From Owenia fusiformis (taxonomy: Eukaryota; Annelida; Polychaeta; Sabellida; Oweniidae): a stretch of 64,000 nucleotides of DNA. Positions 11,953-55,458 of the stretch are shown here, piece after piece. A model generated the notes under the pieces. The model was not told the origin of the DNA and made no database searches. It saw nothing but the letters and a program-made list of their open reading frames with translations. The stretch lies in NCBI GenBank assembly GCA_903813345.2, contig CAIIXF020000004.1, positions 846,513 through 910,512 of the forward strand. The letters are read 5' to 3'. The translations under genes were made by a program, and so were the position numbers. The first letter of the stretch is position 1. The number at the start of each line of letters is the position of its first letter.

Positions 11953-14579
11953 ATGGAAAAGAAGAATAACTTCACTGTGCAAACCATTGCAATAGTCTTT
12001 GCTCTGGTGATTGCTGTCTTGTCTTTTGTATGCTCAATTGTACTATACAACGAAACACAAAAACAAAATGGTAGGCCAGTCGAACTGGATGCTAAAATAG
12101 CCAAATTGAATAACGAACTGTACCAAGTGAAATATGATCTCGTTCAAGTAACCGGTGAGCTTATTCAGGTCAAACATGAACTTGGCAAAGTCAAAGATGA
12201 GTTACTTAAACAACAAAACGAATCTCGAAATGAAGTTTTTAACGTGAATGTCGAATGTCTGAAAGTAAAGAATGAACAAAAAGAGGCGCAGTTACGTATT
12301 GGTGAACTTGAAATACAAATACAGGTATGTTCTTTAAAAACAGCTCGAAATCCCCAATTCATGTCAGACATTGTACGATTTTTTACGAAAGGATTTCATA
12401 CCTCAACATATACTTGAATATCAGGAAACTATCAACTATAATTGTCCAATCACAATAACAAGATAGAGCATTTCATTCAAAGGTCCGGTTTACAAAGATA
12501 ACAAAGTACGACATGTCACACTTTCCAAATGAAACATCGATGGGACATTTAGTTTTTTTTATCAGAAAAAAGAATGATTCGTGATAATTTGATGCACTTC
12601 ATTGTGTTTTCTGGACGTTTATCCTATCTTATTTTATCTTATCTTGTTTGACATTTTTAGTATTTGACGAGCGCCAAAGATCAGAATGATGAAAAAACGT
12701 ATTTTAACACAACACTGAACAGAATAAAACGACAAACGTCAGCAGCAGTTGCAGGTCTGTAAAATATTCCCTTTAAACTTTTTAAAAATTCATGGAGATT
12801 TTTTTATTTGCATAGCACTCACTTTAAATATAGAACAATCATGATTATATCTAAGCTGAACAATCATTTTCATAAACATTTTGTATTCAAGGCTGCAATT
12901 GCAATGGGCGTGATGGTAGAGATGGATTAGTTGGACCACAAGGGCCACCCGGCCCAGAAGGCAAACCAGGTCCCCAAGGTACCCCGGGGGCACAAGGCCC
13001 ACCAGGGGCACAAGGTACACCGGGGGCACAAGGCACACCGGGGGCACAAGGCACACCAGGGGCACAAGGCAAACCAGGTCCCCAAGGTACACCGGGGGCA
13101 CAAGGCACACCAGGGGCACAAGGCACACCTGGAGTGCAGGGAGCAAATGGCAGAGATGGTAGGGATGTAAGTGCAGTTTTTATTATACACAATGCAATGA
13201 ATTCCTGATGGTGGTGACATCACCAGTCATTAATAATCAAACCAGGCTTAAATCAACAAGTTTAATTCATATTGGGCAACGAAGCTTTTAAAGAAACGTT
13301 GAAGCATTAACTTAGTTTTTCCAGATTAATTTTGGTCGATACATTCATGAATACGATAGTTTTGAATAAATAGAGAATATATTTTGATTCAGGCGTGATA
13401 TTATTTTTATACACGAATGGATTGGATAATCGAAAGGAAGGATCGTAGCGTAGGGAGCTGTTTCTTTTCTATACTTGGTTTTTGATAGATGAAATTATGG
13501 GATTTTTTAATTAAAGAATAATACTAAATGTTGTTTCATATTTAGGGTGTAATTGGACAGGGCTTATCTATTAGTGATATGAGTACCTTACTTGAACAGC
13601 TACATATTGCTGCACCATATAGTAACACATCCACTGGTGCTCATGGTCCAACAGGCCCAAGAGGTCTAGCAGGTGGCGCTGTTTATACAAGATGGGGGAG
13701 AACAACATGCCCCAGTGGTGTTGAGAAAGTGTATTCAGGTGTGTAAATCGAGTCTTTGAACCCCAAATGATACTAATTTAAATCTTAGTATATAGTTTTT
13801 GGTAGATCAATTGTTTATTTGATAGTTTAAAATAGGCATTTGTTTTTAAGAAAGGTATATATTAATAGTTGAAGACTGTGTTTATTTGTTGTAAACAAAT
13901 ACATATAGGGTCATGTACAAATTGACAATCAATAAATTGATACATTATTTGACACATCATTGTGTATGAATTTTTACCTTTACGGTCGACCCAGTAAGTT
14001 TATCAATGTAGATGTTTTACTTTAATTATGCTATTGACAAATTTAGATACACCTTAATGTTTTGTTGAAGGTATCATCGGAAATTCACATTATACTAGCA
14101 CGGGATCAGGAGGTAACTATCTGTGTCTACCCAAGGAACCTGAGTGGGGATACACTATGGCTGGTACACAATCAGGCACTTATATCTATGGAGTAGAGTA
14201 TGAGGTTGGCTCTGCAAACAATCCGTTTCTTACTGACAACTTCCCCGATCCTACACAACCGGCTCGTTGGCTTCATCAACACGATGCAGTATGTGCTGTT
14301 TGTAGAGTCCCCGAGAGGAGCAGCCATTTTATGCTACCTGCAATGAAATCATGCCCCGATTCTTGGATTAAGGAATACAATGGGTATTTAATGAGTATGC
14401 TTAACACTCACCATAAAACAGAGTTCATATGTGTAGACGAATCTCCCGAAGCTGATGAAGGAGGTCATGAAAACAAGAATGGGGGTCTTCTGTATGTGGT
14501 AGAAGCCATTTGTGGTGCTCTCCCTTGTCCAAAATATATCAATGGATATGAACTCACGTGTGCTGTATGCACGAAGTAA
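11953..14579 (+). CDS. Type II membrane collagen with short-chain collagen C4-like domain, copy 1
   Basis: Exons 11953-12324, 12661-12754, 12892-13166, 13546-13738 and 14071-14579 join in frame with GT/AG ends to give 480 residues. Exon A encodes a short tail, one hydrophobic helix (about residues 10-32) and a heptad-like coiled coil to about residue 124. Exon B encodes YLTSAKD and a furin-type site, RIKR|Q. Exon C starts with CNCN and then 29 uninterrupted Gly-X-Y triplets. Exon D carries GVIGQGLS, a few more triplets and [15 protein letters not shown]. Exon E is a cysteine-rich domain (LCLP, CAVCRVP, CPDSW, LPCP, LTCAVC) like that of invertebrate short-chain collagen C4 proteins. Inferred role: trimeric membrane collagen, shed at the furin site, with the globular domain outside the cell. 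If the exon A donor is not used, translation continues to 12417. Confidence 0.88.
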
Positions 14580-14673
14580 ATTCGACTGATATCTGATATG
14601 AACTCACTAATTTGTATTGCACATGAACTGACAATGAAAATATTGTGTTATTAAATTACAGTTAAACCAACAG

Positions 14674-15788
14674 GTACAGAATACCTTATAGAGAGACCTT
14701 ATACAGAATACCTTATTGAGATACCTTATACAGAATACCTTATAGATAGACCTTATACAGAATACCTTATAGAGAGACATCGTACAGAATACCCTATAGA
14801 GAGACCTTATGAAGCATACTTTATAGAGAGACCTTATACAGAATACCTTACAGAGAAACCTTATACAGAATACCTTATAGAGAGACCTTTTACAGAATAC
14901 TTTATAGAGAGACATTATACAGAATACCTTATTGAGATACCTTATACAGAATGCTTTATAGAAAGACATTATACAGAATACCTTATAGAGAGACATTATA
15001 CAGAATACCTTATAGAGAGACCTTATACAGAATACCTTATTGAGATACCTTATACAGAATACTTTATAGAGAGACATTATACAGAATACCTTATTGAGAT
15101 ACCTTATATAGAATACTTTATAAAGAGACATTATACAGAATACCTTATAGAGAGACATTATACAGAATACCTTATTGAGATACCTTATACAGAATACTTT
15201 ATAGAGAGACATTATACAGAATACCTTATAGAGAGACATTATACAGAATACCTTATAGACAGACCTTATACAGAATACCTTATTGAGATACCTTATACAG
15301 ACTACCTTATAGAGAGACATTATACAGAATACTTTATAGAGAGACATTATACAGAATACCTTATAGAGAGACATTATACAAAACTTTATAGAGAGACATT
15401 ATACAGGATACCTTATAGAGAATCCTTATACAGAATACCTTATAGAGAGACATTATACAGAATACCTTATAGAGAGACCTTTACAGTATACTTTATAGAG
15501 AGACATTATACAGAATACCTTATAGAGAGACATTATACAGAATACTTTATAGAGAGACATTATACAGAATACCTTATAGAGAATCCTTATACAGAATACC
15601 TTATAGAGAGACATTATACAGAATACCTTCTAGAGAGACCTTTTACAGTATACTTTATAGAGAGACATTATACAGAATACCTTATAGAGAGACATTATAC
15701 AGAATACTTTATAGAGAGACATTATACAGAATGCCTTATAGAGAAACCTTATACAGAGACATTATACAGAATACCTTATAGAGAGATC
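14674..15788. repeat. 27-bp minisatellite, spacer array 2 (~41 units)
   Basis: This is the same 27-bp unit as at 9081, beginning about 95 bp after the copy 1 stop codon and just after an ATTAAATTACAG string (possible poly(A) signal variant). It contains more TTGAGATACC-type variants than array 1, so the arrays have diverged. The right border lacks the usual GGTTCCGCACAACGGGC and goes straight into TCTAATTTTAATTGATC. Confidence 0.92.
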
Positions 15789-17447: not shown

Positions 17448-20400
17448 ATGGAAAAGAAGAATAACTTGTGTATGCACACCATTGCAATTGCCTTTGCTCT
17501 GGTGATTGCTGTCTTGTCTTTTGTATGCTCAATTGTACTATACAACGAAACACAAAAACAAAATGGTGGGCCAGTCGAACTGGATGCTAAAATAGTCAAA
17601 TTGAATAACGAACTGTACCAAATGAAATACGATCTCGTTCAAGTAACCGGTGAGCTTATTCAGGTCAAACATGAACTTGGCAAAGTCAAAGATGAGTTGC
17701 TTCAACAACAAAACGAATCTCGAAATGAAGTTTTTAACGTGAATGTCGAATGTCTGAAAGTAAAGAATGAACAAAAAGAGGCGCAGTTACGTATTGGTGA
17801 ACTTGAAACACGAATACAGGTATGTTCTTTAAAAACAGCTCGAAATCCCCAATTCATATCAGACATTGTTTGAATACACGTTTTCATACTTGAATGTGTA
17901 ATATACAAAAATAGAAAACAAATAAAACTAGAGTATCCCATTCACTAACGAGATATATCAATGTAAGACGTATCCCTCTTTCCTTCCCATCTCTATCTCA
18001 TCCAACCATTAACACGATAGAAACGATAGAAACCAAAAATCCACGGGGTATTTAGATACAGTTTAGATTATTGGAATATTTTGTAGTCCGAAATCCTCAA
18101 TTCATGTCAGACATTGTACGATTTTTTACGAAAGGTTTTCATACCTCAACATATACTTGAATCTATACAAACATTTTTTATCAAGAAACCAACTATGAAT
18201 GTAATTATCTAACCACAATAACAAACCAGAGCATTTCATTCACTCGCCCGGTTTACAAAGATAACAAAGTACGACATGTCACACTTTCCAAATGAAACAT
18301 CGATGGGACATTTAGTTTTTTTATCCAAAAAAAGAATGATTCGTGATAATATGATGCACTTCATTGTGTTTTCTGGACGTTTATCCTATCTTATTTTATA
18401 TTGTTTGACATTTTTTAGCATTTGATCAGCGCCAAAGATCAGAATGATGAAAAAACGTATTTTAACACAACATTGAATAGAATAAAACGACAAACGACAG
18501 CAGCAGTCGCAGGTCTGTAAAACATTCAATTTAAACTTTTAAAAAATCATGGAGATTAATTTTTTATTTGCATAGCATTTACTTAATAACAATCATAATC
18601 ATATTAAAGCTGAACAATCATTTTCATTAACATTATGTATTCAAGGCTGCGATTGCAATGGGCGAGATGGTAGAGATGGATTAGTTGGACCACAAGGGCC
18701 ACCCGGCCCAGAAGGCAAACCTGGTCCCCAAGGTATCCCGGGGGCACAAGGTACACCAGGGGCACAAGGCACACCAGGGGCACAAGGCACACCAGGGGCA
18801 CAAGGCACACCTGGAGTGCAGGGAGCAAGTGGCAGAGATGGTAGGGATGTACGTGCACTTTTTATTCTACACAATGCAATGAATTCCTGATGGTGGTGAC
18901 ATCACCAGTCATTAATAATCAAACCAGGCTTAAATCAACAAGTTTAACTCATATTGGGCAACGAAGCTTCAAAAGAAACGTGAAAACATTATCTTAGTTT
19001 TTCCAGATTAATTTTGGTCGATGTGTTCATGAATACGACAATTTTGAATAAATAGAGAATATATTTTGATTCAGGCGTGATATTATTTTTACACACGAAT
19101 GGATAGGGCAATTGAAAGGAGGGATCGTAGCGTAGGGAGCTGTTTTGTATGCTTCATTTTTTGATAGATGAAAATATTGGAATTTTTAATTAAAGAATAA
19201 TACTAAATGTTAATAATAACAAGTTCATTTACTTCAGAGTAATATGTTTTATTTTCGACGTTTCACCAGTAATCCAACTAGCTTTTTCAAGATGAAAAAG
19301 AAAAAGCTTGAAAAATCTAGTTTGATTACTGGTGAAACGTCGAAAATAAAACATATTACTCTGAAGTAAATGAACTTGTTATTATTAATATATCACCAGA
19401 GTGATGAATCTACACAGAAATACTAAATGTTGTTTCATATTTAGGTTGTAATTGGACAGGGCTTATCCATTAGTGATATGAGTAACTTACTTGAACAGCT
19501 ACATATTGCTGCACCATACAGTAACAAATCCACTGATGCGCAGGGTCCCCCTGGTCCACGAGGCCCAAGAGGTTTAGCAGGTGGCGCTGTTTATACAAGA
19601 TGGGGGAGAACCACATGCCCAAGTGGTGTTGAGAAAGTGTATTCAGGTGTGTAAATCGAGTCTTTGAACCCCGAATGATACTAATTTAAATTATAGTATA
19701 TAGTTTTTGGTAGATCAATTATTTATTTGATAGTTTGAAATAGGCATTTAAGTTTTTTTTAAGAAAGGTATGTATCAATAGTTGAAGACTGTGTTTATTT
19801 GTTGTACACAAATAGTCACATACATATAGGGCCATGTACAAATTGACAATAGGCATTGAAATTGAAATTCACAATAAATTGATACATTATTTAACAGATA
19901 ATTGTGTATGAATTTCCACCTTTATTCAGCCTGTCGGTAACACCCCAGTCACATTTGTCACACGGCGGCCGCAGGTCGACCGCAGATCAATTAAATCGGT
20001 GAATTTCTGCGGCGAGCGTAGAAAAACTACGCTCGCCTTGCGGCCTCCGTACGGCGTATGCAGATTTTTACAGGCCGCAGGGAAGGCGTAGAAATTATAA
20101 CTCGGAGTTATTCATTTCTGAGGTCGCTGTAGAAATCAACTGGCTCAACAAGATTAAATCATTATTTGTCAATGTTTCACGATCACTTTTCATTTGATAT
20201 TACATCCTAGCACTATGAATAACATTTATAAGTTGTCCCAATGTAAATAAAATGAAAAAAAGTATTATTTATCAACAGAAATTTAAAATTCACCGTGCGG
20301 CTGCCGTGGGAAATGTGACTGCAAAAGTATGAGAGCGCAGAAATTCCACGGCGAGCGTAGAAATGTTACTGGCCGCAGAAATGATAGACCGCAAGGTCGC

Positions 20401-22688
20401 CGTAGGAAATGTGACTGGGGTGTTACACCCCAGTCACATTTGTCGCACGGCGGCCGCAAGTCGACCGCAGAACAATTAAATCTGTGAATTTCTGCGGCGA
20501 GCGTAGAAAAACTACGCTCGCCTTGCGGCCTCCGTACGGCGTATGCAGATTTTTACAGGCCGCAGGGAAGGCGTAGAAATTATAACCCGGAGTTATAATA
20601 TTTGTTCATTTCTGAGGTCCCCGTAGAAATCAACTGGCTCAACAAGATTGAATCATTATTTGTCAATGTTTCACGATCACTTTTCATTTGATATTACATC
20701 CTAGCACTTTGAATAACATTTATAAATTGCCCTGATGTAAATAAAATAAAAAAAACTATTATTTATCAATATAAATTTAAAATTCACCGTGCGGCTGCCG
20801 TGGGAAATGTGACTGCAAAAGTATGAGAGCGCAGAAATTCTGCGGCGAGCGTAGAAAAGCTACTGGCCGCAGAAATGATAGACCGCAAGGTCGCCGTAGG
20901 AAATGTGACTGGGGTGTTACGGTCGACCCAGTAACACCCCAGTCACATTTCCTACGGCGACCTTGCGGTCTATCATTTCTGCGGCCAGTAGCTTTTCTAC
21001 GCTCGCCGCAGAATTTCTGCGCTCTCATACTTTTGCAGTCACATTTCCCACGGCAGCCGCACGGTGAATTTTAAATTTATATTGATAAATAATAGTTTTT
21101 TTCATTTTACTTACATCAGGAGAATTTATAAATGTTATTCAAAGTGCTAGGATGTGATATCAAATGAAAAGTGATCGTGAAACATTGACAAATAATGATT
21201 CAATCTTGTTGAGCCAGTTGATTTCTACGGGGACCTCAGAAATGAACAAATATTATAACTCCGAGTTATAATTTCTACGCCTTCCCTGCGGCCTGTAAAA
21301 ATCTGCATACGCCGTACGGAGGCCGCAAGGCGAGCGTAGTTTTTCTACGCTCGCCGCAGAAATTCACCGATTTAATTGTTCTGCGGTCGACTTGCGGCCG
21401 CCGTGCGACAAATGTGACTGGGGTGTAAGTTTATCAGTGTAGATATTTACTTTAATTACGCTATTAACAAAGGATAGGTATCGATATGGTGAACTGAATT
21501 CAACAATGTTTTTCTCCTAAACCAATTATTGAAAACATTCTGTAAAGAAACACGATCCTTTATGTAATGTTGACTGATTTACAACAGTTTAATGCGAAAA
21601 TTATTTATAAATACTTTATATAACTGTTTTTGTTAAGATTTTTTGTTTTTTAGTGCAATTGTTTATTGTTCCTTTCTACCAATTTTTGAGAATGAAATAA
21701 AATGTTTTTCCGAACCTTGTTGGAACAAAATAGTATATACAACATATTATTCTTAGACCTCTCAATATTATAGTTATACAAAGGAAATTTTGGTTGATTT
21801 AACAAAAAGTAAAAAAAAAAAGTATTTTATTTCATTAAAAGATACTAAAAATCAACCAAAATTTCCTTTGTACAATTATAATATTGAGAGACCTAAACAC
21901 GTTGTGTTTATGTCGTTTTTTCCAATCAAGTTCGGAAAGATGTTTCATTTCATTCCGAACATATGATACCAAGAACAAAAGAAGTGTCTTCTAAAACAAT
22001 GTAGAGAAAAGTATATATATTTTTTCAAAATTATATTGTTACCATTCAAAAGATGACCATTAAATTGACGATGTGTAAAATTTTTAGATTTTTTTATGAC
22101 TGGTTTAAGAGAAACGTGTGTTCAAAAAGTTCACCATATCGATAACAATCCTTTAGATACAATTAGTGTTTTGTTGAAGGTATCATCGGAAAATCACATT
22201 ATACTACCATGGGATCAGGAGGTAACTATCTGTGTCTACCCAAGGTACCTGAATGGGGATACACTATGGCTGGTACACAGTCAAATAGTTATATCTATGG
22301 AGTAGAGTATGAGCTTCGCTATGCAAACAATCCATTTCTTACTGACAACTTTCCCGACCCTACACAACCGGCTAGTTGGCTCCATGAACATGATGCAGTA
22401 TGTGCTGTTTGTAGAGTCCCCGAGAGGAGCAGCCATTTTATGCTACCTGCAATGAAATCATGCCCTGATTCTTGGACTAAGGAATACAGTGGATACTTAA
22501 TGAGTGCACATAACTCCCATCAAAAGTCTGAGTTTATTTGCGTTGATGAAGCTCCCGAAGCTGATGGAGGAGGTCATGAAAACAAGAATGGGGGTCTTCT
22601 GTATGTGGTAGAAGCCATTTGTGGTTCTCTTCCTTGTCCAAAATATATCAATGGATATGAACTCACGTGTGCTGTATGCACGAAGTAA
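17448..22688 (+). CDS. Type II membrane collagen with short-chain collagen C4-like domain, copy 2
   Basis: Exons 17448-17819, 18419-18512, 18646-18848, 19445-19646 and 22180-22688 join in frame to give 459 residues. The layout is as in copy 1: membrane helix, coiled coil, RIKR|Q site, CNCN plus 21 Gly-X-Y triplets, linker and C4-like domain. Differences include HLISA for YLTSA in exon B, a first exon D codon GTT (Val) in place of GGT (Gly), STDAQG for STGAHG, and three more residues in the exon D collagen stretch. The D-E intron has swollen to 2.5 kb by three MITEs and a foldback element, and the C-D intron holds another foldback insertion. The A-B intron has an extra ~250 bp that repeats part of its own 5' end. 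All splice sites are kept, so the gene looks intact. Confidence 0.85.
19212..19418. mobile_element. Foldback insertion with 13-bp target duplication
   Basis: Two ~78-bp inverted arms (AATAACAAGTTCATTTAC... and ...GTAAATGAACTTGTTATT) flank a short loop, followed by a single-copy tail ATATCACCAGAGTGATGAATC. The 13-bp string AATACTAAATGTT lies on both sides (19199-19211 and 19419-19431) and occurs once at the same intron position in the other copies. Each arm carries ACTGGTGAAACGTCGAAAATA, a phrase type found at ends of Penelope-like and some LINE elements. An inverted pair of 3' ends is a plausible origin, but the family is inferred. Confidence 0.7.
19941..20422. mobile_element. Harbinger-type MITE, copy 2 element 1
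   Basis: The element starts CACCCCAGTCACATTT and ends AAATGTGACTGGGGTG, about 485 bp, with no coding capacity. It has an internal hairpin, GGCGAGCGTAG/CTACGCTCGCC, separated by five A. It is flanked by TAA on the left and TTA on the right. Copy 1 has no element at this intron position. A 3-bp TWA target site is the hallmark of PIF/Harbinger transposons. Confidence 0.8.
20426..20916. mobile_element. Harbinger-type MITE, copy 2 element 2
   Basis: The element is in the same orientation as element 1 and separated from it by a shared TTA. Its right flank TTACGGTCGACCC matches the unoccupied site in copy 1 (CTTTACGGTCGACCC). The CACCCCAG...CTGGGGTG ends are intact. Confidence 0.8.
20935..21425. 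mobile_element. Harbinger-type MITE, copy 2 element 3 (inverted)
   Basis: The element is inverted relative to elements 1 and 2. It sits between CCCAGTAA and TAAGTTTATC, and copy 1 reads CCCAGTAAGTTTATC at the empty site. The duplication is therefore exactly TAA. With element 2 it forms a large palindrome, which explains two identical mirror-image 83-codon open frames at 20777-21074. Confidence 0.85.
21690..21960. mobile_element. Foldback element in D-E intron, copy 2
   Basis: This is a nested palindrome. The outer arms are GAATGAAATAAAATGTTTTTCC and its near complement before CATTCCGAAC. The inner arms are AGACCTCTCAATATTATA...TTGGTTGATTT and its complement. The central loop is A/T-rich. It occurs at the same place in copies 3 (about 31693-31935, with part of the right inner arm deleted) and 5 (about 54458-54730), so it predates those duplications. 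It is absent from copy 1. Family unknown. Confidence 0.65.
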
Positions 22689-25304: not shown

Positions 25305-25631
25305 TTGATTTAACCGTGTTTGGTCAACTCAGACAGCAAGACAGGGTAAATTATTTGTTATACGGTGATTGCTCATTACCATATCTGACAAATCAGAAAA
25401 TTGTTGAAATGACTGCAGGTTTTCTGCAGTTAATTATTACTATTTTAAACGAGTAAGTTTTTATTTTTATATACTGTTCTGCATAACTGAGTTGATCCAT
25501 AAATCTCATTGCAACTTCACTTTACATTATATAAATTCTTGACTACCAGGGCCAATAATGCATTGCTTCGGCCCTTGCTGTGTTTGTAATTTGTTTTGTT
25601 TAAATGATAATAAAAAAACTTTAAACCTAAA
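25305..25631. mobile_element. 327-bp insertion nested inside LINE ORF2
   Basis: The 9-bp string AGTCCCTAA occurs on both sides (25296-25304 and 25632-25640). The ORF2 frame before it (HFEMLGT) rejoins the frame after it (LGTPKQF) when one duplicate and the insert are removed. The insert has no clear inverted termini or poly(A), and I do not recognise it. A short SINE or DNA-transposon derivative are both possible. Confidence 0.7.
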
Positions 25632-25640
25632 AGTCCCTAA

Positions 25641-30385: not shown

Positions 30386-30915
30386 AAAGAATAAAAACTA
30401 AATGTTGTTTCATATTTAGGGTGTCATTGGACAGGGGTTATCCATTAGCGATATGAGTAACTTACTTGAACAGCTACATATTGCTGCACCATACAGTAAC
30501 AAATCCACTGGTGCGCAGGGTCCCCCTGGGCCCCGAGGCCCAAGAGGTTTAGCAGGTGGCGCTGTTTATACAAGATGGGGGAGAACCACATGCCCAAGTG
30601 GTGTTGAGAAAGTGTATTCAGGTGTGTAAATCGAGTCTTTGAACCCCGAATGATACTAATTTGAATTATATTATATAGTTTTTGGTAGATCAATTATTTA
30701 TTTGATAGTTTAAAATAGGCATTTAAGTTTTTTTAAAGAAAGGTATGTATCAATAGTTGAAGACTGTGTTTATTTGTTGTAAACAAATAGTCACATACAT
30801 ATAGGGCCATGTACAAATTGACAATAGGCATTGAAATTGAAATTCACAATAAATTGATACATTATTTAACAGATAATTGTGTATGAATTTCCACCTTTAT
30901 TCAGCCTGTCGGTAA

Positions 30916-31407: not shown

Positions 31408-32848
31408 TTACGGTCGACCCAGTAAGTTTATCAGTGTAGATATTTACTTTAATTACGCTATTAACAAAGGATAGGTATCGATATGGTGAACTGAATTCAA
31501 CAATGTTTTTCTCCTAAACCAATTATTGAAAACATTGTGTAAAGAAACACGATCCTTTATGTAATGTTGACTGATTTACAACAATTTAATGCGAAAATTA
31601 TTTATAAATACTTTATATAACTGTTTTTGTTAAGATTTTTTTGTTTTTTAGTGCAATTGTTTATTGTTCCTTTCTACCAATTTTTGAGAATGAAATAAAA
31701 TGTTTTTTCCGAACCTTGTTGGAACAAAATAGTATATACAACATATTCTTAGACCTCTCAATATTATAGTTATACAAAGGAAATTTTGGTTGATTTAACA
31801 AAAAGTAAAAAAAGTATTTTATTTTATTAAAAGATACTAAAAATCAACCAAAATATTGAGAGACCTAAACACGTTGTGTTTATGTCGTTTTTTCCAATCA
31901 GGTTCGGAAAGATGTTTCATTTCATTCCGAACATATGATACCAAGAACAAAAGAAGTGTCTTCTACAACAATGTAGAGAAAAGTATATATATTTTTTCAA
32001 AATTATATTGTTACCATTCAAAAGATGACCATTAAATTGACGATGTGTAAAATTTTTAGATTTTTTTATGACTGGTTTAAGAGAAACGTGTGTTCAAAAA
32101 GTTCACCATATCGATAACAATCCTTTAGATACAGCTTAGTGTTTTGTTGAAGGTATCATCGGAAAATCACATTATACTACCACGGGATCAGGAGGTAACT
32201 ATCTGTGTCTACCTAAGGAACCTGAATGGGGATACACTATGGCTGGTACACAGTCAAATAGTTATATCTATGGAGTAGAGTATGAGGTTCACCCTGCAAA
32301 CAATCCATTTCTAACTGATAACTTCCCTGATCCTACACAACCGGCTCGTTGGCTCCATGAACATGATGCAGTATGTGCTGTTTGTAGAATTCCCGAGAGG
32401 AGCAGCCACTTTATGCTCCCTGCAATGAAATCATGCCCTGATTCTTGGACTAAGGAATACAGTGGATACTTAATGAGTGAACATAACTCCCATCAAAAGT
32501 CTGAGTTTATTTGCGTTGATGAAGCTCCCGAAGCTGATGGGGGAGGTCATGAAAACAAGAATGGGGGTCTTCTGTATGTGGTAGAAGCCGTTTGTGGTTC
32601 TCTTCCTTGTCCAAAATATATCAATGGATATGAACTCACGTGTGCTGTATGTACGAAGTAAATTCGACTGATATCTGATATTAACGTACTACTTTGTATT
32701 GCACATGAAGTGACAATGAAAATATTGTGTTATTAAATTACAGTTAAACCAACAGATACAGCTTACCTTATTGAAACATATCTGCATCTCTTTATAATTG
32801 AACTACCCACTGGAAACCAATAGCTGTTAAAAATGGCATTTTTATCCC

Positions 32849-32990
32849 ATCGAACGAAGTTCGGAGGGATATAGGGAACGCCTCCGTCCGTCTGTCCGTC
32901 CGGGCAATAACTCAAATACCATTGGCCCGATTTTGTTCATATTTTTACACATATACCCAATGGAGGTAGAAGTTCTGCTCGAAAACCGAT
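32849..32990. mobile_element. Palindrome-headed (GTCC)n repeat before spacer array 3
   Basis: The segment begins CCCATCGAACGAAGTTCGGAGGG, a near palindrome, then CGCCTCCGTCCGTCTGTCCGTCC and CAATAACTCAAATACCATTG. It interrupts the shared spacer after AATGGCATTTTT. The spacer block (AACCAATAGCTGTTA) is found again on the far side of the 27-bp array at 34130. A duplicated spacer therefore brackets this element and the array. Confidence 0.6.
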
Positions 32991-35752: not shown

Positions 35753-37474
35753 ATGGAAAAGAAGAATAACTTCACTCTGCAAACCATTGCAATAGCCTTT
35801 GCTCTGGTGATTGCTGTCTTGTCATTTGTATGCTCAATTGTACTATACAACGAAACACAAAAACAAAATGGTGGGCCAGTCGAACTGGATGCTAAAATAG
35901 CCAAATTGAATAACGAACTGTACCAAGTGAAATATGATCTCGTTCAATTAACCGGTGAGCTTATTCAGGTCAAACATGAACTTGGCAAAGTCAAAAAAGA
36001 GTTCTTTCAACAACAAAACGAATCTCGAAATGAAGTTTTTAACGTGAATGTCGAATGTCTGAAAGTAAAGAATGAACAAAAAGAGGCGCAGTTACGTATT
36101 GGTGAACTTGAAACACGAATACAGGTATGTTCTTTAAAAACAGCTCGAAATCCCCAATTCATGTCAGACATTGTACGATTTTTTACGAAAGGTTTTCATA
36201 CCTCAACATAAACTTGAATCTATACAAACATTTTTTATCAAGAAACCATCAACTATGAATGTAATTGTCTAACCACAATAACAAACCAGAGCATTTCATT
36301 CACTGGCCAGGTTTACAAAGATAACAAAGTACGACATGTCACACTTTCCAAAATGAAAAATCGATGGGATATTTAGTCACAGTTAAGTCTAAATCTAAAT
36401 TGGGTTTTTTTACAGAAAAAAGAATGATTCGTGATAATCTGATGCACTTCATTGTGTTTTCTGGACGTTTATCCTATCTTATTTTATATTGTTTGACATT
36501 TTTTAGCATTTGATCAGCGCCAAAGATCAGAATGATGAAAAAACGTATTTTAACACAACATTGAATAGAATAAAACGACAAACGACAGCAGCAGTCGCAG
36601 GTCTGTAAAACATTCAATTTAAACTTTTAAAAAATCATGGAGATTAATTTTTTATTTGCATAGCATTTACTTAATAACAATCATAATCATATTAAAGCTG
36701 AACAATCATTTTCATTAACATTATGTATTCAAGGCTGCGATTGCAATGGGCGTGATGGTAGAGATGGATTAGTTGGACCACAAGGGCCACCCGGCCCAGA
36801 AGGCAAACCTGGTCCCCAAGGTATCCCGGGGGCACAAGGTACACCGGGGGCGCAAGGCACACCTGGAGTGCAGGGAGCAAGTGGCAGAGATGGTAGGGAT
36901 GTACGTGCACTTTTTATTCTACACAATGCAATGAATTCCTGATGGTGGTGACATCACCAGTCATTAATAATCAAACCAGGCTTAAATCAACAAGTTTAAC
37001 TCATATTGGGCAACGAAGCTTCAAAAGAAACGTAAAAACATTATCTTAGTTTTTCCAGATTAATTTTGGTCGATGCGTTCATGAATACGACAATTTTGAA
37101 TAAATTGAGAATATATTTTGATTCAGGCGTGATATTATTTTTACACACGAATGGATAGGGCACTGGAAAGGAGGGATCGTAGCGTAGGGAGCTGTTTTGT
37201 ATGCTTCATTTTTTGATAGATGAAAATATGGGAATTTTTAATTAAAGAATAATACTAAATGTTGTTTCATATTTAGGTTGTAATTGGACAGGGCTTATCC
37301 ATTAGTGATATGAGTAACTTACTTGAACAGCTACATATTGCTGCACCATACAGTAACAAATCCACTGGTGCGCAGGGTCCCCCTGGTCCCCGAGGCCAAA
37401 GAGGTTTAGCAGGTGGCGCTGTTTATACAAGATGGGGGAGAACCACATGCCCAAGTGGTGTTGAGAAAGTGTAT
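35753..37474 (+). pseudogene. Collagen gene copy 4, truncated in exon D
   Basis: Exons A (35753-36124), B (36507-36600) and C (36734-36900, CNCN plus 17 Gly-X-Y triplets) are intact, with the RIKR|Q site present. Exon D starts at 37277 and reads normally to GVEKVY. At 37474/37475 it runs into the 63-bp minisatellite, where all other copies have TCAG|GTGTGT. The donor is lost and the frame stops after VDGSAL. No exon E follows; the next gene is on the other strand. A transcript could still make a membrane-anchored or shed collagen without its globular domain, or splice exon C to a distant acceptor. Confidence 0.85.
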
Positions 37475-40400
37475 GTTGATGGATCAGCCCTTTGAAGTGG
37501 GTAATTTGTGGCTAATCAGATGTGACAATTGTCATATGTTGGTGGATCAGCCCTTTGAAGTGGGTAATATGCGGTTAATCATATGTGGCAATTGTCTTAT
37601 GTTGATGGATCAGCCCTTTGAAGTGGGTAATATGCAGTTAATCAGAGGTGACAATTGTCTTATGTTGGTGGATCAGCCCTTTAAAGTGGGTAATATGCAG
37701 TTAATCAGAGGTGACAATTGTCTTATGTTGGTGGATCAGCCCTTTAAAGTGGGTAATATGCAGTTAATCAAATGTGACAATTGTCGTATGTTGGTGGATC
37801 TGCCCTTTGAAGTGGGTAATATGCAGTTAATCAGATGTGACAATTGTCGTATGTTGGTGGATCAGTCCTTTGAAGTTGGTAATATGCAGGTAATCAGATG
37901 TGACAATTGTCTTATGTTGGTGGATCAGCCCTTTGAAGTGGGTAATATGTGGTTAATCATATGTGACAATTGTCTTATGTTGGTGGATCAGCCCTTTGAA
38001 GTGGGTAATATGCAGTTAATCAGATGTGACAATTGTCTTATGTTGGTGGATCAGCCCTTTGAAGTGGGTAATATGCGGTTAATCAGATGTGACAATTGTC
38101 TTATGTTGGTGGATCAGCCCTTTGAAGTGGGTAATATGCGGTTAATCAGATGTGACAATTGTCTTATGTTGGTGGATCTGCCCTTTGAAGTGGGTAATAT
38201 GCGGTTAATCAGATGTGACAATTGTCTTATGTTGGAGGATCAGCCCTTTGAAGTGGGTAATATGCAGTTAATCAGATGTGACAATTGTCATATGTTGGTG
38301 GATCAGCCCTTTGAAGTGGGTAATATGCGGTTAATCAGAGGTGACAATTGTCGTATGTTGGTGGATCTGCCCTTTGAAGTGGGTAATATGCGGTTAATCA
38401 GATGTGACAATTGTTGTATGTTGGTGGATCAGCCCTTTGAAGTGGGTAATATGCAGTTAATCAGATGTGACAATTGTCTTATGTTGGTGGATCAGCCCTT
38501 TAAAGTGGGTAATATGCAGTTAATCAGATGTGACAATTGTCATATGTTGGTGGATCAGCCCTTTGAAGTGGGTAATATGCAGTTAATCAGATGTGACAAT
38601 TGTTGTATGTTGGTGGATCAGCCCTTTGAAGTGGGTAATATGCAGTTAATCAGAGGTGACAATTGTCATATGTTGATGGATCAGCCCTTTGAAGTGGGTA
38701 ATATGCAGTTAATCATATGTGACAATTGTCATATGTTGGTGGATCAGCCCTTTGAAGTGGGTAATATGCGGTTAATCATATGTGGCAATTGTCTTATGTT
38801 GATGGATCAGCCCTTTGAAGTGGGTAATATGCAGTTAATCAGATGTGACAATTGTCTTATGTTGGTGGATCAGCCCTTTGAAGTGGGTAATATGCAGTTA
38901 ATCAGATGTGACAATTGTCTTATGTTGGTGGATCTGCCCTTTGAAGTGGGTAATATGCAGTTAATCAGATGTGACAATTGTCGTATGTTGGTGGATCAGC
39001 CCTTTAAAGTGGGTAATATGCAGTTAATCAGAGGTGACAATTGTCTTATGTTGGTGGATCTGCCCTTTGAAGTGGGCAGTATGCAGTTAATCAGTTGTGA
39101 CAATTGTCTTATATTGGTGGATCTGCCCTTTGAAGTTGGTAATTTGTGGTTAATCAGATGTGACAATTGTCTTATGTTGGTGGATCAGACCTTTGAAGCG
39201 GGTAATATGCGGTTAATCATATGTGGCAATTGTCTTATGTTGGTGGATCAGACCTTTGAAGTTGGTAATATGCGGTTAATCAGATGTGACAATTGTCATA
39301 TGTTGGAGGATCAGCCCTTTGAAGTGGGTAATATGTGGTTAACCAGATGTGGCAATTGTCGTATGTTGATGGATCAGCCCTTTGAAGTGGGTAATATGCA
39401 GTTAATCAGAGGTGACAATTGTCGTATGTTGATGGATCAGCCCTTTGAAGTGGGTAATATGCAGTTAATCAAATGTGACAATTGTCGTATGTTGGTGGAT
39501 CAGCCCTTTGAAGTGGGTAATATGCTGTTAATCAGATGTGACAATTGTCGTATGTTGGTGGATCAGCCCTTTGAAGTGGGGAATATGCAGTTAATCAGAT
39601 GTGACAATTGTCATATGTTGGTGGATCAGCCCTTTGAAGTGGGTAATATGCAGTTAATCAGATGTGACAATTGTCTTATGTTGGTGGATCAGCCCTTTGA
39701 AGTGGGTAATATGCAGTTAATCAGATGTGACAATTGTCGTAGTTTGGTGGATCAGCCCTTTGAAGTGGGTAATATGCAGTTAATCAGATGTGACAATTGT
39801 CTTATGTTGGTGGATCAGCCCTTTGAAGTGGGTAATATGCAGTTAATCAGATGTGACAATTGTCATATGTTGGTGGATCAGCCCTTTGAAGTGGGTAATA
39901 TGCTGTTAATCAGATGTGACAATTGTCTTATGTTGGTGGATCAGCCCTTTGAAGTGGGTAATATGCAGTTAATCAGATATGACAATTGTCTTATGTTGGT
40001 GGATCAGCCCTTTGAAGTGGGTAATATGCTGTTAATCAGATGTGACAATTGTCTTATGTTGGTGGATCAGCCCTTTGAAGTGGGTAATATGCAGTTAATC
40101 AGATGTGACAATTGTCGTAGTTTGGTGGATCAGCCCTTTGAAGTGGGTAATATGCAGTTAATCAGATGTGACAATTGTCTTATGTTGGTGGATCAGCCCT
40201 TTGAAGTGGGTAATATGCAGTTAATCAGATGTGACAATTGTCATATGTTGGTGGATCAGCCCTTTGAAGTGGGTAATATGCTGTTAATCAGATGTGACAA
40301 TTGTCTTATGTTGGTGGATCAGCCCTTTGAAGTGGGTAATATGCAGTTAATCAGATATGACAATTGTCTTATGTTGGTGGATCAGCCCTTTGAAGTGGGT

Positions 40401-43182: not shown

Positions 43183-43650
43183 TTTACCGATACAATGTTG
43201 GCTATTTTTCCTCGTAAACTACATGTTTACTTAGTTGTTTGCGAACTTAAACCTCTCACATTACCTGTTTCAAACATTGAATTTTTAGTTGTTATTCATT
43301 TCTACATATTACGCTTAAATAACCTTATATCAGTTACTCTTTATATGCCCTAACTTAATGCCCTAACTCTCCCATTCATAGTTATTTAGGTTTTAGGTCA
43401 ACTTAACTGTAATGCATAAGTAACTTTTCTTTTTATATCTTTAATGTTATACTAATAACCACCACTGTAATATCATTCAACTCATAAACAACTCACAAAA
43501 TGCAAAAAGACACTTTTTAAACGCATATAAAATCATTCTTATAGATTTCTCACTATTCTACACAAGTCTTGTAGTTTATGGCTTATTAGTTGATGCAAAA
43601 AATCTTTCAAATACTTTCTAAGAGTTTCTTGGCCTTTGACTTATATAAAT
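43183..43650. other. Non-coding stretch upstream of the PPxY gene
   Basis: It must hold the promoter of the minus-strand PPxY gene, but no core promoter element could be assigned. A+T-rich, with no other feature seen. Confidence 0.35.
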
Positions 43651-43654
43651 CCTA

Positions 43655-47346: not shown

Positions 47347-47349
47347 ACC

Positions 47350-48930: not shown

Positions 48931-48959
48931 TAAAACCTGTGTAAGTGAAATACCATTGG

Positions 48960-50256: not shown

Positions 50257-53200
50257 ATGGAAAAGAAGAATAACTTCACTGTGCAAACCATTGCAATAGC
50301 CTTTGCTTTGGTGGTTGCTGTCTTGTCTTTTGTATGCTCAATTGTAGTATACTACGAAACACAAAAACAAAATGGTGGGCCAGTCGAACTGGATGCTAAA
50401 ATAGCCAAATTGAATAACGAACTGTACCAAGTGAAATATGATCTCGTTCAAGTAACCGGTGAGCTTATTCAGGTCAAACATGAACTTGGCAAAGTCAAAG
50501 AAGAGTTCTTTCAACAACAAAACGAATCTAGAAATGAAGTTTTTAACGTGAATGTCGAATGTCTGAAAGTAAAGAATGATCAAAAAGAGGCGCAGTTACG
50601 TATTGGTGAACTGGAAACACAAATGCAGGTATGTTCTTTAAAAACATCTCGAAATCCCCAATTCATGTCAGACATTGCACGATTCTTTACATAAGGTTTT
50701 CATACCTCAGCATATATTTGAATCGATACAAACATTTTTTATCAAGGAACTATCAACTATGAATGTAATTGTCTCACCACAATAACAAACCAGAGCATTT
50801 CATTCACTCGCCCGGTTTACAAAGATAACAAAGTACGACATGTCACACTTTCCAAAATGAAAAATCGATGGGATATTTAGTCACAGTTAAGTCTATCTAA
50901 ATTGTTTTTTTTTACAGAAAAAAGAATGATTCGTGATAATCTGATGCACTTCATTGTGTTTTCTGGACGTTTATCCTATCTTATTTTATCTTATCTTGTT
51001 TGACATTTTTAGTATTTGACAAGCGCCAAAGATCAGAATGATGAAAACACGTATTTTAACGCAACACTGCTGAACAGAATAAAACGACAAACGTCAGCAG
51101 CAGTTGCAGGTATGTAAAATATTCCCTTTAAACTTATAAAAATTCATGGAGATTTTTTTTATTTGCATAGCACTCACTTAAAATATAGAACAATCATGAT
51201 CATATCTAAGTTGAACAATCATTTTCATAAACATTTTGTATTCAAGGCTGCAATTGCAATGGGCGTGATGGTAGAGATGGATTAGTTGGACCACAAGGGC
51301 CACCCGGCCCAGAAGGCAAACCAGGTCCCCAGGGTATATGTATATTTCTTCATGTTTAGGTTGCAATTGTAATGGCCGTGATGGTAGAGATGGATTAGTT
51401 GGACCACAAGGGCCACCCGGCCCAGAAGGCAAACCAGATCCCCAGGGTATATGTATATTTCTTCATGTTTAGGTTGCAATTGTAATGGCCGTGATGGTAG
51501 AGATGGATTAGTTGGACCACAAGGGCCACCCGGCCCAGAAGGCAAACCAGGTCCCCAGGGTATATGTATATTTCTTCATGTTTAGGTTGCAATTGTAATG
51601 GCCGTGATGGTAGAGATGGATTAGTTGGACCACAAGGGCCACCCGGCCCAGAAGGCAAACCAGATCCCCAGGGTATATGTATATTTCTTCATGTTTAGGT
51701 TGCAATTGTAATGGTCGTGATGGTAGAGATGGATTAGTTGGACCACAAGGGCCACCCGGCCCAGAAGGCAAACCAGGTCCCCAAGGTACCCCGGGGGCAA
51801 AAGGTACACCTGGAGTTCAGGGAGCTGCTGGCAGAGATGGTAGGGATGTAAGTGCACTTTTTATTCTACACAATGCAATGGATTCCTGATGGTGGTGACA
51901 TCACCAGTCATTAATAATCAAACCAGACTTAAATCAACAAGTTTAATTCATATTGGACAACGAAGCTTTAAAAGAAATGTGAAAACATTATCTTACTTTT
52001 CCAGATTAATTTTGGTCGATGCATTCATGAATACGATAGTTTTGAATAAATAGAGAATATATTTTGATTTAGGGCCCCTTTAGGCGTTATATTATTTTTA
52101 CACACGAATGGATAGGACATTGGAAAGAAGGGATGTAGCGTAGGGAGCTGTGTCTTTTTTATCCTTCGTTTTTGATTGATGAAAATATGGGAATTTTAAA
52201 TAAAAGAATAATACTAAATGTTGTTTCATATTTAGGGTGTAATTGGACAGGGCTTATCCATTAGTGATATGAGTAACTTACTTGAACAGCTACATATTGC
52301 TGCACCATACAGTAACAAATCCACTGGTGCGCAGGGTCCCCCTGGTCCCCGAGGCCCAAGAGGTTTAGCAGGTGGCGCTGTTTATACAAGATGGGGGAGA
52401 ACCACATGCCCAAGTGGTGTTGAGAAAGTGTATTCAGGTGTGTAAGTCGAGTCTTTGAACCCCGAATGATACTAATTTAAATTATAGTATATAGTTTTTG
52501 GTAGATCAATTATTTATTTGATAGTTTGAAATAGGCATTTAAGTTTTTTTTAAGAAAGGTATGTATCAATAGTTGAAGACTGTGTTTATTTGTTGTAAAC
52601 AAATAGTCACATACATATAGGGCCATGTACAAATTGACAATAGGCATTGAAATTGAAATTCACAATAAATTGATACATTATTTAACAGATAATTGTGTAT
52701 GAATTTCCACCTTTATTCAGCCTGTCGGTAACACCCCAGTCACATTTGTCACACGGCGGCCGCAGGTCGACCGCAGATCAATTAAATCGGTGAATTTCTG
52801 CGGCGAGCGTAGAAAAACTACGCTCGCCTTGCGGCCTCCGTACGGCGTATGCAGATTTTTACAGGCCGCAGGGAAGGCGTAGAAATCATAACTCGGAGTT
52901 ATAAATTTTTGTTCATTTCTGAGGTCGCTGTAGAAATCAACTGGCTCAACAAGATCAAATCATTATTTGTCAATGTTTCACGATCACTTTTCATTTGATA
53001 TTACATCCTAGCACTATGAATAACATTTATAAGTTGTCCCAATGTAAATAAAATGAAAAAAAGTATTATTTATCAACAGAAATTTAAAATTCACCGTGCG
53101 GCTGCCGTGGGAAATGTGACTGCAAAAGTATGAGAGCGCAGAAATTCCACGGCGAGCGTAGAAATGTTACTGGCCGCAGAAATGATAGACCGCAAGGTCG

Positions 53201-55458
53201 CCGTAGGAAATGTGACTGGGGTGTTACACCCCAGTCACATTTCTCGCACGGCGGCCGCAAGTCGACCGCAGAACAATTAAATCTGTGAATTTCTGCGGCG
53301 AGCGTAGAAAAACTACGCTCGCCTTGCGGCCTCCGTACGGCGTATGCAGATTTTTACAGGCCGCAGGGAAGGCGTAGAAATTATAACCCGGAGTTATAAT
53401 ATTTGTTCATTTCTGAGGTCCCCGTAGAAATCAACTGGCTCAACAAGATTGAATCATTATTTGTCAATGTTTCACGATCACTTTTCATTTGATATTACAT
53501 CCTAGCACTTTGAATAACATTTATAAATTGCCCTGATGTAACACCCCAGTCACATTTCCTACGGCGACCTTGCGGTCTATCATTTCTGCGGCCAGTAGCT
53601 TTTCTACGCTCGCCGCAGAATTTCTGCGCTCTCATACTTTTGCAGTCACATTTTCCACGGCAGCCGCACGGTGAATTTTAAATTTCTATTGATAAATAAT
53701 AGTTTTTTTCATTTTATTTACATCAGAACAATTTATAAATGTTATTCAAAGAGCTAGGATGTAATATCAAATGAAAAGTGATCGTGAAACATTGACAAAT
53801 AATGATTCAATCTTGTTGAGCCAGTTGATATCTACGGGGACCTCAGAAATGAACAAATATTATAACTCCGAGTTATAATTTCTACGCCTTCCCTGCGGCC
53901 TGTAAAAATCTGCATACGCCGTACGGAGGCCGCAAGGCGAGCGTAGTTTTTCTACGCTCGCCGCAGAAATTCACCGATTTAATTGATCTGCGGTCGACTT
54001 GGGGCCACCGTGCGACAAATGTGACTGGGGTGTTAATAAAATGAAAAAAATCTATTATTTATCAATATAAATTTAAAATTCACCGTGCGGCTGCCGTGGG
54101 AAATGTGACTGCAAAAGTATGAGAGCGCAGAAATTCTGCGGCGAGCGTAGAAAAGCTACTGGCCGCAGAAATGATAGACCGCAAGGTCGCCGTAGGAAAT
54201 GTGACTGGGGTGTTACGGTCGACCCAGTAAGTTTATTAACAAAGGATAGGTATCGATATGGTGAACTGAATTCAACAATGTTTTTCTCCTAAACCAATTA
54301 TTGAAAACATTCTGTAAAGAAACACGATCCTTTATGTAATGTTGACTGATTTACAACAGTTTAATGCGAAAATTATTTATAAATACTTTATATAACTGTT
54401 TTTGTTAAAATTTTTTGTTTTTTAGTGCAATTGTTTATTGTTCCTTTCTACCAATTTTTGAGAATGAAATAAAATGTTTTTCCGAACCTTGTTGGAACAA
54501 AATAGTATATACAACATATTCTTAGACCTCTCAATATTATAGTTATACAAAGGAAATTTTGGTTGATTTAACAAAAAGTAAAAAAAAAGTATTTTATTTC
54601 ATTAACAAGATACTAAAAATCAACCGAAATTTCCTTTGTACAATTACAATATTGAGAGACCTAAACACGTTGTGTTTATGTCGTTTTTTCCAATGAGGAT
54701 CGGAAAGATGTTTCATTTCATTCCGAACATATGATACCAAGAACAAAAGAAGTGTCTTCTAAAACAATGTAGAGAAAAGTATATATATTTTTTCAAAATT
54801 ATATTGTTACCATTCAAAAGATGACCATTAAATTGACGATGTGTAATTTTTTTAGATTTTTTTAATGACTGGTTTAAGAGAAACGTGTGTTCAAAAAGTT
54901 CACCATATCGATAACAATTCTTTAGATACAGCTTAGTGTTTTGTTGAAGGTATCATCGGAAAATCACATTATACTTCCACGGGATCAGGAGGTAACTATC
55001 TGTGTCTACCTAAGGAACCTGAATGGGGATACACTATGGCTGGTGCACAGTCAAATACTCATATCTATGGAGTAGAGTATGAGCTTCCCTATGCAAACAA
55101 TCCGTTTCTTACTGACAACTTCCCCGACCCTACACAACCGGCTAGTTGGCTTCATAACCATGATGCAGTATGTGCTGTTTGTAGAGTCCCCGAGAGGAGC
55201 AGCCATTTTATGCTCCCTGCAATGAAATCGTGCCCTGATTCTTGGACTAAGGAATACAGTGGATACTTAATGAGTGAACGTAACTCCCATCAAAAGTCTG
55301 AATTTATTTGCGTTGATGAAGCTCCCGAAGCTGATGAAGGAGGTCATGAAAACAAAGATGGGGGTCTTCTGTATGTGGTAGAAGCCATTTGCGGTGCTCT
55401 CCCTTGTCCGAAATATATCAATGGATATGAACTCACGTGTGCTGTATGCACGAAGTAA
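50257..55458 (+). CDS. Type II membrane collagen with short-chain collagen C4-like domain, copy 5
   Basis: Exons 50257-50628, 51013-51109, 51699-51847, 52236-52437 and 54950-55458 join in frame to give 442 residues. The organisation matches copies 1 and 2: membrane helix (about 10-32), coiled coil, RIKR|Q, CNCN with 15 Gly-X-Y triplets, linker and C4-like domain (LPYANNP, MSERNSH variants). Exon B has one extra codon (TLLNR). The first part of exon C is present five times in tandem, 113 bp apart, each with its own acceptor; only the last leads directly into a full collagen exon. The D-E intron holds nested MITEs and the foldback element. All frames are open, so this copy also looks functional. 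Confidence 0.85.
51247..51698 (+). repeat. Tandem mini-exon array (four extra exon C heads, 113-bp period)
   Basis: Units start at 51247, 51360, 51473 and 51586, with the fifth at 51699 being the productive exon C. Each contains [20 protein letters not shown] and PEGKP, then CCCAGG|GTATATG (possible donor) and 26 bases ending CATGTTTAG (acceptor). If spliced, each is an 87-nt exon with phase 1 at both ends. Reading straight through meets TAG. Units 2 and 4 share GAT for GGT (Gly to Asp in one triplet) while 1, 3 and 5 have GGT, so a 226-bp pair was duplicated. Confidence 0.9.
52732..53223. mobile_element. Harbinger-type MITE, copy 5 element 1
   Basis: CACCCCAG...CTGGGGTG ends with TAA on the left and a TTA shared with the next element. 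Same intron site as in copies 2 and 3, so the insertion predates the duplication. Confidence 0.8.
53227..54212. mobile_element. Harbinger-type MITE, copy 5 element 2, interrupted
   Basis: This is the counterpart of element 2 in copy 2, split after CCCTGATGTAA by an inverted element (53542-54032). It resumes with ATAAAATG at 54036 and ends in TTACGGTCGACCC as in copy 2. Confidence 0.8.
53542..54032. mobile_element. Harbinger-type MITE, copy 5 element 3, nested and inverted
   Basis: Inserted into the TAA of CTGATGTAAATAAAAT inside element 2, bounded by TAA and TTA. It is a different insertion site from the inverted element of copy 2, so the family moved after the copies separated. Confidence 0.8.
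54458..54730. mobile_element. Foldback element in D-E intron, copy 5
   Basis: Counterpart of 21690-21960, with both inner arms complete (TAGACCTCTCAATATTATAG and its complement before GAGAGACCTAAAC). Confidence 0.65.

What the first reader, a model, noticed from the sequence alone, without database searches (positions are those of the whole stretch)
11953..55458. Tandem family of furin-cleavable type II membrane collagens with a short-chain C4-like head
Seen: in copies 1, 2, 4 and 5, exon A encodes a membrane helix and coiled coil, exon B a strict RIKR|Q site, exon C Gly-X-Y repeats; in copies 1, 2, 3 and 5, exon E encodes a ten-cysteine globular region together with exon D. Known: membrane collagens such as type XIII, XVII and XXV combine a membrane helix, coiled coil and furin site. 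Short-chain collagen C4-like domains are known from sponges and other invertebrates. Inference: pairing the two makes a sheddable soluble collagen with a lectin- or C1q-like layout, locally amplified. I am not aware of this architecture being described.
Basis: partly seen in the sequence, partly recalled or inferred. Interest (0 to 1): 0.75.

Follow-up and report, generated by a model that had tools for sequence, protein, structure and literature searches.

The report
Sheddable membrane collagens with NC1-like heads
An annelid-like genome carries a family of small collagens that appear to be made anchored in the membrane, cut free by a furin-type protease and released with a collagen-IV-related head, a combination of two known collagen designs.

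Summary
Copies 1, 2 and 5 give intact five-exon genes (480, 459, 442 aa; GT-AG introns, phases 0-1-0-1). Copy 4 has exons A-D, then runs into a minisatellite; copy 3 keeps only D and E after a deletion of A-C. The family is genome-wide: 11 further intact models, five chromosomes in all. RxKR is present in 18 of 20 exon-B regions seen; the exceptions are L006 (HRKR) and a decayed copy (RIIR). The head has ten cysteines and is a spongin-type (short-chain collagen) NC1 domain related to collagen IV NC1, not a lectin or C1q domain. Eleven distant heads sampled showed no collagen in the stretches held. Best reading: a type II membrane pro-collagen, trimerised by coil and head, cut by a furin-type convertase and released as a short rod with a trimeric head. 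It works like MACITs and nematode cuticle collagens, but its NC1-type head sets it apart. There was no transcript, protein or cleavage evidence, and the founding spongin-family paper could not be read, so novelty is provisional: a new variant of known kinds.

The parts
11953..12324 (+). copy 1 exon A: N-terminus, 22-residue uncharged helix, 92-residue helical/coiled stretch
12661..12754 (+). copy 1 exon B with RIKR|QT at 12721-12732
12892..13166 (+). copy 1 exon C: Gly-X-Y block (30 triplets), GRDGRDG at its start and GRDGRD at its end
13546..13738 (+). copy 1 exon D: linker with N-glycosylation sequon, short Gly-X-Y, start of head (RWG..C)
14071..14579 (+). copy 1 exon E: rest of ten-cysteine NC1-like head, stop
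17448..17819 (+). copy 2 exon A
18419..18512 (+). copy 2 exon B (RIKR at 18479-18490)
18646..18848 (+). copy 2 exon C
19445..19646 (+). copy 2 exon D
22180..22688 (+). copy 2 exon E
30420..30621 (+). copy 3 exon D (exons A-C deleted: junction between 29716 and 29740)
32153..32661 (+). copy 3 exon E
35753..36124 (+). copy 4 exon A
36507..36600 (+). copy 4 exon B (RIKR at 36567-36578)
36734..36900 (+). copy 4 exon C
37277..37476 (+). copy 4 exon D, running into a minisatellite; no exon E, so truncated (right end approximate)
50257..50628 (+). copy 5 exon A
51013..51109 (+). copy 5 exon B (RIKR at 51076-51087)
51245..51788 (+). 113-bp tandem array (4.8 units) of partial exon C with its acceptor
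51699..51847 (+). copy 5 exon C, last unit of the array, used in the intact model
52236..52437 (+). copy 5 exon D
54950..55458 (+). copy 5 exon E

Best explanation
A family of type II membrane pro-collagens of an annelid-like animal. Shown in the sequence: five exons in one frame encode a short N-terminus, a 22-27-residue uncharged helix, a helical stretch of variable length, an RxKR site, a short Gly-X-Y block, a linker that usually holds an N-glycosylation sequon, and a ten-cysteine NC1-type head. Inferred: the chain inserts as a signal anchor with its C-terminus in the lumen. Three chains associate through the coil and the NC1 head, which would let even a 7-15-triplet helix fold. A furin-type convertase cuts after RxKR in the late secretory pathway, leaving the anchor-coil stub behind and releasing a soluble short collagen with a trimeric NC1-like head into the extracellular or apical matrix.
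For: Intact models with GT-AG borders in 14 of 14 genes attempted: 4 in the C4 array and 10 on C1, C3, C9 and C12. RxKR in 15 of 15 models that reach exon B, and in 18 of 20 exon-B regions seen when unfinished and decayed copies are added; in the 14 aligned models R, K and R are the only invariant columns among 34 of exon B. Hydropathy maxima 2.37-3.08 in 15 of 15 models. Heptad periodicity reached by at most 3 of 1000 shuffles in 10 of 14 models tested. Exon E dN/dS 0.08-0.33 in 12 of 12 pairs; exon A 0.10-0.63 in the 8 pairs that are not both within the C4 array. Head against collagen IV NC1: profile score 37.5, best of 200 shuffles 23.4. Proprotein-convertase P-domain exons exist in the genome. 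Precedent: furin-type cleavage releases MACITs (PMC4678570, PMC7848082, passages) and convertase cleavage promotes secretion of nematode cuticle collagens (PMC10538796, passages).
Against: No transcript or protein data. Topology, coil and cleavage were not predicted with dedicated programs. Heptad signal is absent in four of 14 models tested, all on C3 (362-788 of 1000 shuffles reach it), and L010 was too short to test. L006 reads HRKR and has a shortened hydrophobic stretch; a decayed copy reads RIIR. Within the C4 array exon A shows dN/dS 0.68-1.06 at very low dS, so no sign of constraint there, and exon B outside the site is poorly constrained (0.25-0.87 where finite). The hhalign probability is 78.7% over 64 columns only. 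The head structure could not be predicted.
Confidence: 0.72

Rival explanations
1. The N-terminal hydrophobic stretch is a cleaved signal peptide, not an anchor. Exons A-B form a soluble coiled-coil N-propeptide that the convertase removes, so the protein is never a membrane collagen.
For: Some other heads in the genome follow a short hydrophobic leader and a coil in one frame (L021, L027). 56 of 173 nematode cuticle collagens are predicted to have secretion signals rather than membrane segments (passage in PMC10538796).
Against: The uncharged segment is 22-27 residues in 15 of 15 models, longer than a usual signal-peptide core (recalled), after a charged N-terminus. No SignalP-type program was available.
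Confidence: 0.2
2. They mainly act uncut, as cell-surface adhesion or recognition receptors like class A scavenger receptors; cleavage is minor.
For: The domain order resembles membrane collagen receptors (named in PMC7848082, passages).
Against: R, K and R are the only invariant columns of exon B. Pfam finds no ligand-binding domain of that kind in the two full proteins scanned.
Confidence: 0.12
3. A decaying repeat array: the copies are mostly pseudogenes spread by duplication and have no protein role.
For: Copies 3 and 4 are truncated; exon C of copy 5 is scrambled by a 113-bp tandem array; a further copy near C4:990 kb is decayed, with about ten such units; exon A is near neutral within the array.
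Against: Three of five window copies and 11 genes elsewhere are intact, and exon E shows dN/dS 0.08-0.33 in 12 of 12 pairs.
Confidence: 0.05

Closest known systems
[quoted passage not shown] 'short-chain collagen C4')
   Same: Short collagen block joined to an NC1-type head related to collagen IV; ten cysteines; invertebrates (PMC5395295, passages).
   Different: The passages I saw describe only a collagen part plus NC1; the words furin and transmembrane have 0 hits in that paper's main text.
MACITs (collagens XIII, XXIII, XXV, COL-99)
   Same: Type II membrane layout, juxtamembrane coil, furin site just before the collagen part, shed ectodomain (PMC4678570 and PMC7848082, passages).
   Different: MACITs have three collagenous domains (seven in COL-99) and a conserved C-terminus around a Trp motif, no NC1-IV-type head described; not identified in the Lophotrochozoa available in 2015 (abstract of PMC4678570).
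Nematode cuticle collagens (SQT-3, DPY-17)
   Same: N-terminal signal or membrane segment, RxxR convertase site, collagen, large multigene family (PMC10538796, passages).
   Different: No NC1-type head is described in the passages I saw.
Colmedins (gliomedin, UNC-122) and ectodysplasin A
   Same: Type II membrane protein, short collagen, released ectodomain, globular C-terminal domain (PMC7848082, passages).
   Different: Their heads are olfactomedin or TNF domains; Pfam finds neither here.
Collagen IV
   Same: Head related over the CxxC...CP..W....GY region.
   Different: PF01413 does not match the four proteins scanned; PF01413 matches sit elsewhere in the genome.

Membership tests
[quoted passage not shown]
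   PF01391 match plus head in two joined proteins; 11-34 Gly-X-Y triplets in 15 models
Spongin short-chain collagen-related | NC1 head homologous to collagen IV NC1 | tested here: met
   hhalign score 37.5, P 1.7e-5, probability 78.7%, 64 columns; best of 200 shuffles 23.4, reversed 16.1
Spongin short-chain collagen-related | seven cysteines shared with collagen IV plus three spongin-specific ones | tested here: inconclusive
   17 of 18 heads have exactly ten cysteines, one has eleven; the positions could not be matched to the published figure
MACIT | type II membrane helix with juxtamembrane coil and furin site before the first collagen block | tested here: met
   (from sequence only; coil supported in 10 of 14 models tested)
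MACIT | conserved C-terminal end with a W-containing motif, several collagenous domains | tested here: not met
   the 14 collagen-family heads listed end in C-T/S-K; one main collagen block, at most a few short further ones
Collagen IV | PF01413 (C4) domain | tested here: not met
   no PF01413 match at E<=10 in 4 proteins scanned; the genome-wide PF01413 search lists 11 matches, none at these heads
C1q / collectin | C1q or C-type lectin head | tested here: not met
   no such Pfam match in 4 proteins scanned
Colmedin | olfactomedin head | tested here: not met
   no such Pfam match in 4 proteins scanned
Furin-shed collagens | cleavage observed after the site | not testable with these tools
   needs protein work

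The most novel reading that the evidence does not exclude
In a lineage where MACIT collagens were not found, the membrane anchor, coil and convertase site were joined to a spongin-type NC1 head. This made an independent, expanded class of released membrane collagens, and it would mean the shed-membrane-collagen design evolved more than once.
Probability: 0.35. Interest if true: 0.68.

Novelty: new variant of a known kind. Interest (0 to 1): 0.5.

Why it matters
Spongin-type short-chain collagens are reported across invertebrates, yet how they are made and what they do is largely open (my reading of the passages seen). A membrane-anchored, convertase-cut precursor gives a concrete and testable biosynthetic route, would explain how very short triple helices could assemble, and links this family to MACITs and nematode cuticle collagens. 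The apparently collagen-free relatives in the same genome suggest that the NC1 head, rather than the collagen, is the constant part.

Tried and rejected
Lectin or C1q head: rejected, no Pfam match. Collagen IV proper: rejected, PF01413 does not match. Solved relatives of the head: none by sequence. Structure prediction of exon E: tool switched off, so there was no fold search. Search for an intronless (processed) copy that would prove the splices: the five strong exon A matches run only 4-9 residues past the exon A end, and the five C4 exon B matches start 1-8 residues before exon B, as introns predict. One weak match (C4:992664-992804, E 0.056) seemed to cross the B-C border; fetched and read, it lies inside an exon C array of a decayed copy, so it is no processed copy. 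Splicing the tandem exon C units of copy 5 one after another would need 26-bp introns (my reading), so I rate it unlikely. Exon borders were off by one or two bases; those of L013 were off, and those of copy 0; corrected. Exon B donors of L009, L010, L014 and L016 were moved; both choices leave the frame open. In one search my D and E queries were in a wrong frame, so only its A and B matches count; D and E come. The alignment contains a wrong copy 0 model; one search replaces it. In one search the '0/1000' for L010 means not tested (too short). Several dS values exceed 1 and are unreliable as numbers. Paper search with spongin+furin: the 20 listed of 28 looked unrelated. Not tested: MACIT absence in this genome, expression, other animals' genomes (none held).
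Full report
WHERE. The window is G000:C4:846513-910512 of a 498,259,871-base genome in 525 contigs. C1-C12 are 31.9-62.2 Mb each and together about 477.6 Mb; C13 is 0.66 Mb and C14 0.19 Mb, so there are twelve chromosome-size contigs. This fits Owenia fusiformis (505.8 Mb, 12 chromosome-scale scaffolds; passage in PMC9977687). So do one pair of collagen IV NC1 loci on opposite strands about 115 kb apart plus one on a separate contig (a passage in PMC12141075, gives Owenia a COL4 gene pair and a single gene) and three matches to an erythrocruorin-linker family (that the family is annelid-specific is recalled). The species is a probable guess, not a result.

OBSERVATION. Copies 1, 2 and 5 give intact proteins of 480, 459 and 442 aa with GT-AG introns and phases 0,1,0,1. 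Copy 4 keeps A-D and then turns into a minisatellite that gives a 1252-codon open stretch. Copy 3 lost A-C by deletion: bases 29234-29716 match the region upstream of exon A in the other copies, and 29740-29918 match the C-D intron. Copy 5 has a 113-bp tandem array of partial exon C units. The array goes on upstream: L001 holds an intact 441-aa gene and a further D-E pair. About 80 kb downstream of the window (C4:987800-994800) lies a decayed copy whose exon C has grown to about ten such units.

GENOME-WIDE FAMILY. A protein search with exon E gave 64 matches in G000, a lower bound by the tool's own note; 22 of these are close, near-full-length heads (68-100% identity) on C1, C3, C4, C9 and C12. 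I fetched 28 stretches for this. For 14 of the 22 close heads I completed a gene model, and all 14 are intact: c0, c1, c2, c5, L003a, L003b, L005, L007, L008, L009, L010, L013, L014, L016. Borders were fitted by hand; for the ten genes outside C4 the script asked for the expected phases at exons A and B, so equal phases are partly built in, whereas GT/AG and open frames were checked afterwards. The other eight: c3 and the second L001 head have only D-E; L017 showed only D-E in the piece fetched; L002 showed D-E in its piece, and an exon A match lies about 9 kb upstream; L006, L011, L012 and L015 show pieces of all five exons, but I did not finish these models. Of the more distant heads I fetched 11; none of the 11 has a run of five or more Gly-X-Y triplets on the coding strand in the stretch held. 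This is firm for L020, L021, L027 and L028, where leader and head lie in one open frame. For the others an exon could lie outside: the close head L002 also shows no run in its piece. In a midpoint-rooted FastTree of 33 heads (22 close, 11 distant; branch supports not printed) the 22 close heads form one clade.

CONVERTASE SITE. R-x-K-R occurs in 15 of 15 models that reach exon B: the 14 intact ones and copy 4. Adding unfinished and decayed copies, 20 exon-B regions were seen: L011, L012 and L015 also have RGKR, L006 has HRKR, and the decayed copy L036 has RIIR, so 18 of 20 carry the motif. Among 34 alignment columns of exon B in the 14 intact models only R, K and R are invariant, against 73 of 172 columns in exon E. 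The motif variants in the 15 models are RIKR, RRKR and RGKR, followed by Q or E. Eight exon matches to the proprotein-convertase P domain show that such proteases are encoded.

ANCHOR AND COIL. The uncharged segment is 22-27 residues with a hydropathy maximum of 2.37-3.08 in 15 of 15 models. The following stretch is 15-92 residues. Its heptad score is reached by 0-3 of 1000 shuffles in 10 of 14 models tested, but by 362-788 in the four C3 models (L003a, L003b, L005, L007), so a coil is not supported there; L010 is too short and was not tested (my own simple score, not a standard predictor). L006, an unfinished model, has a visibly shortened hydrophobic stretch.

COLLAGEN AND HEAD. The 15 models hold 11-34 Gly-X-Y triplets. 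In the 14 aligned models R-D-G-R-D-G at the start of the block is invariant. An N-glycosylation sequon lies between site and head in 14 of 15 models, not in L003b. Pfam recognises only the collagen repeat above its curated cut-off in the two full proteins scanned. The head has exactly ten cysteines in 17 of 18 sequences and eleven in L020. No solved structure matches by sequence at E up to 10. Its profile aligns with a collagen IV NC1 exon of the same genome over 64 columns (score 37.5, P 1.7e-5, probability 78.7%); the best of 200 shuffles scored 23.4 and the reversed sequence 16.1. This supports the published view that spongin NC1 is a collagen IV NC1 variant (PMC5395295, passages).

SELECTION. 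Twelve pairs were compared. Exon E dN/dS is 0.08-0.33 in 12 of 12. Exon A is 0.10-0.63 in the 8 pairs that are not both within the C4 array, and 0.68-1.06 in the 4 pairs within it, where dS is only 0.04-0.13. Exon B is 0.25-0.87 in the 11 pairs with a finite value. Several dS values exceed 1 and are only indicative. Between copies 1 and 5, exon A dS is 0.04 while exon E dS is 0.27. That suggests the 5' half was homogenised recently (gene conversion or partial duplication; inference).

MECHANISM. By analogy with MACITs, whose helix forms from the N-terminus after coil association and whose ectodomain is released by furin-like convertases (PMC7848082, passages), and with nematode cuticle collagens, where N-terminal cleavage by BLI-4 promotes secretion (PMC10538796, passages), I propose: membrane insertion, trimer formation at both ends, convertase cleavage, release. 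Exon order, frame, site conservation and head homology are shown; topology, trimerisation, cleavage and destination are inferred. Tissue hints come from other animals only and differ. Of four sea anemone spongin-like genes, all but one are mostly expressed in neuroglandular cells (PMC12549020, passages). Two genes annotated short-chain collagen C4 are raised in the Exaiptasia pedal disc (PMC6626399, passages). Oyster papers tie the name to shell formation (PMC12040131, passages) and to growth-associated variants (PMC11270918, passage). A gland- or epidermis-made extracellular matrix component is therefore my first guess for destination (about 0.5).

NOVELTY. Library searches for spongin short-chain collagen, short-chain collagen C4 with transmembrane, spongin with furin, short-chain collagen with annelid, gliomedin with furin, spongin with collagen IV and NC1, short-chain collagen C4-like, Owenia with collagen, short-chain collagen with coiled-coil, and type II transmembrane collagen with convertase showed no paper describing this pairing in the listings and passages that I saw; no paper was read whole. 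Aouacheria et al. 2006, the family's founding paper, is not held and may describe such N-termini. MACITs were reported as not identified in the Lophotrochozoa available in 2015 (abstract of PMC4678570); I did not test that in this genome.

Noticed in passing
window 51245-51788; also L036 (C4:987800-994800): 113-bp tandem array in which units carry a splice acceptor, the 5' part of exon C and a possible donor in the same phase; a decayed copy downstream has about ten units.
   Followed up: partly
window 23148-28744, minus strand: Non-LTR retrotransposon-like frames (endonuclease PF03372, reverse transcriptase PF00078) upstream of the truncated copy 3.
   Followed up: partly
window 20423-21428: About 1-kb near-perfect inverted repeat (98% over 1008 bases) in the D-E intron of copy 2, with related elements in the D-E introns of copies 3 and 5.
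   Followed up: partly
window 9073-10043, 14655-15791, 32831-34107: Minisatellite (open in several frames, LIERPYTEY-type); two of the three blocks lie just downstream of exon E (copies 1 and 3), and a similar block follows exon E in L001, so it may be part of the duplicated unit.
   Followed up: no
window 37410-42575: Minisatellite open over 1252 codons (LVDQPFEVGNMQLIRCDNC-type) whose open frame starts inside exon D of copy 4.
   Followed up: no
G000 C5:6418774-6562844 and L018-L028: Many spongin-type NC1 heads apparently without collagen, some with a leader and coil in a single frame; the C5 cluster alone has more than ten matches.
   Followed up: partly
window 42496-43218, minus strand: About 240-aa open frame with hydrophobic segments and a proline-rich tail; no Pfam match at E<=0.01.
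   Followed up: partly
window 59625-60837: Acidic open frame with RKKR/RRKR motifs followed by a frame that looks like part of a DEG/ENaC-type channel (recalled resemblance; no Pfam match at E<=0.01).
   Followed up: partly
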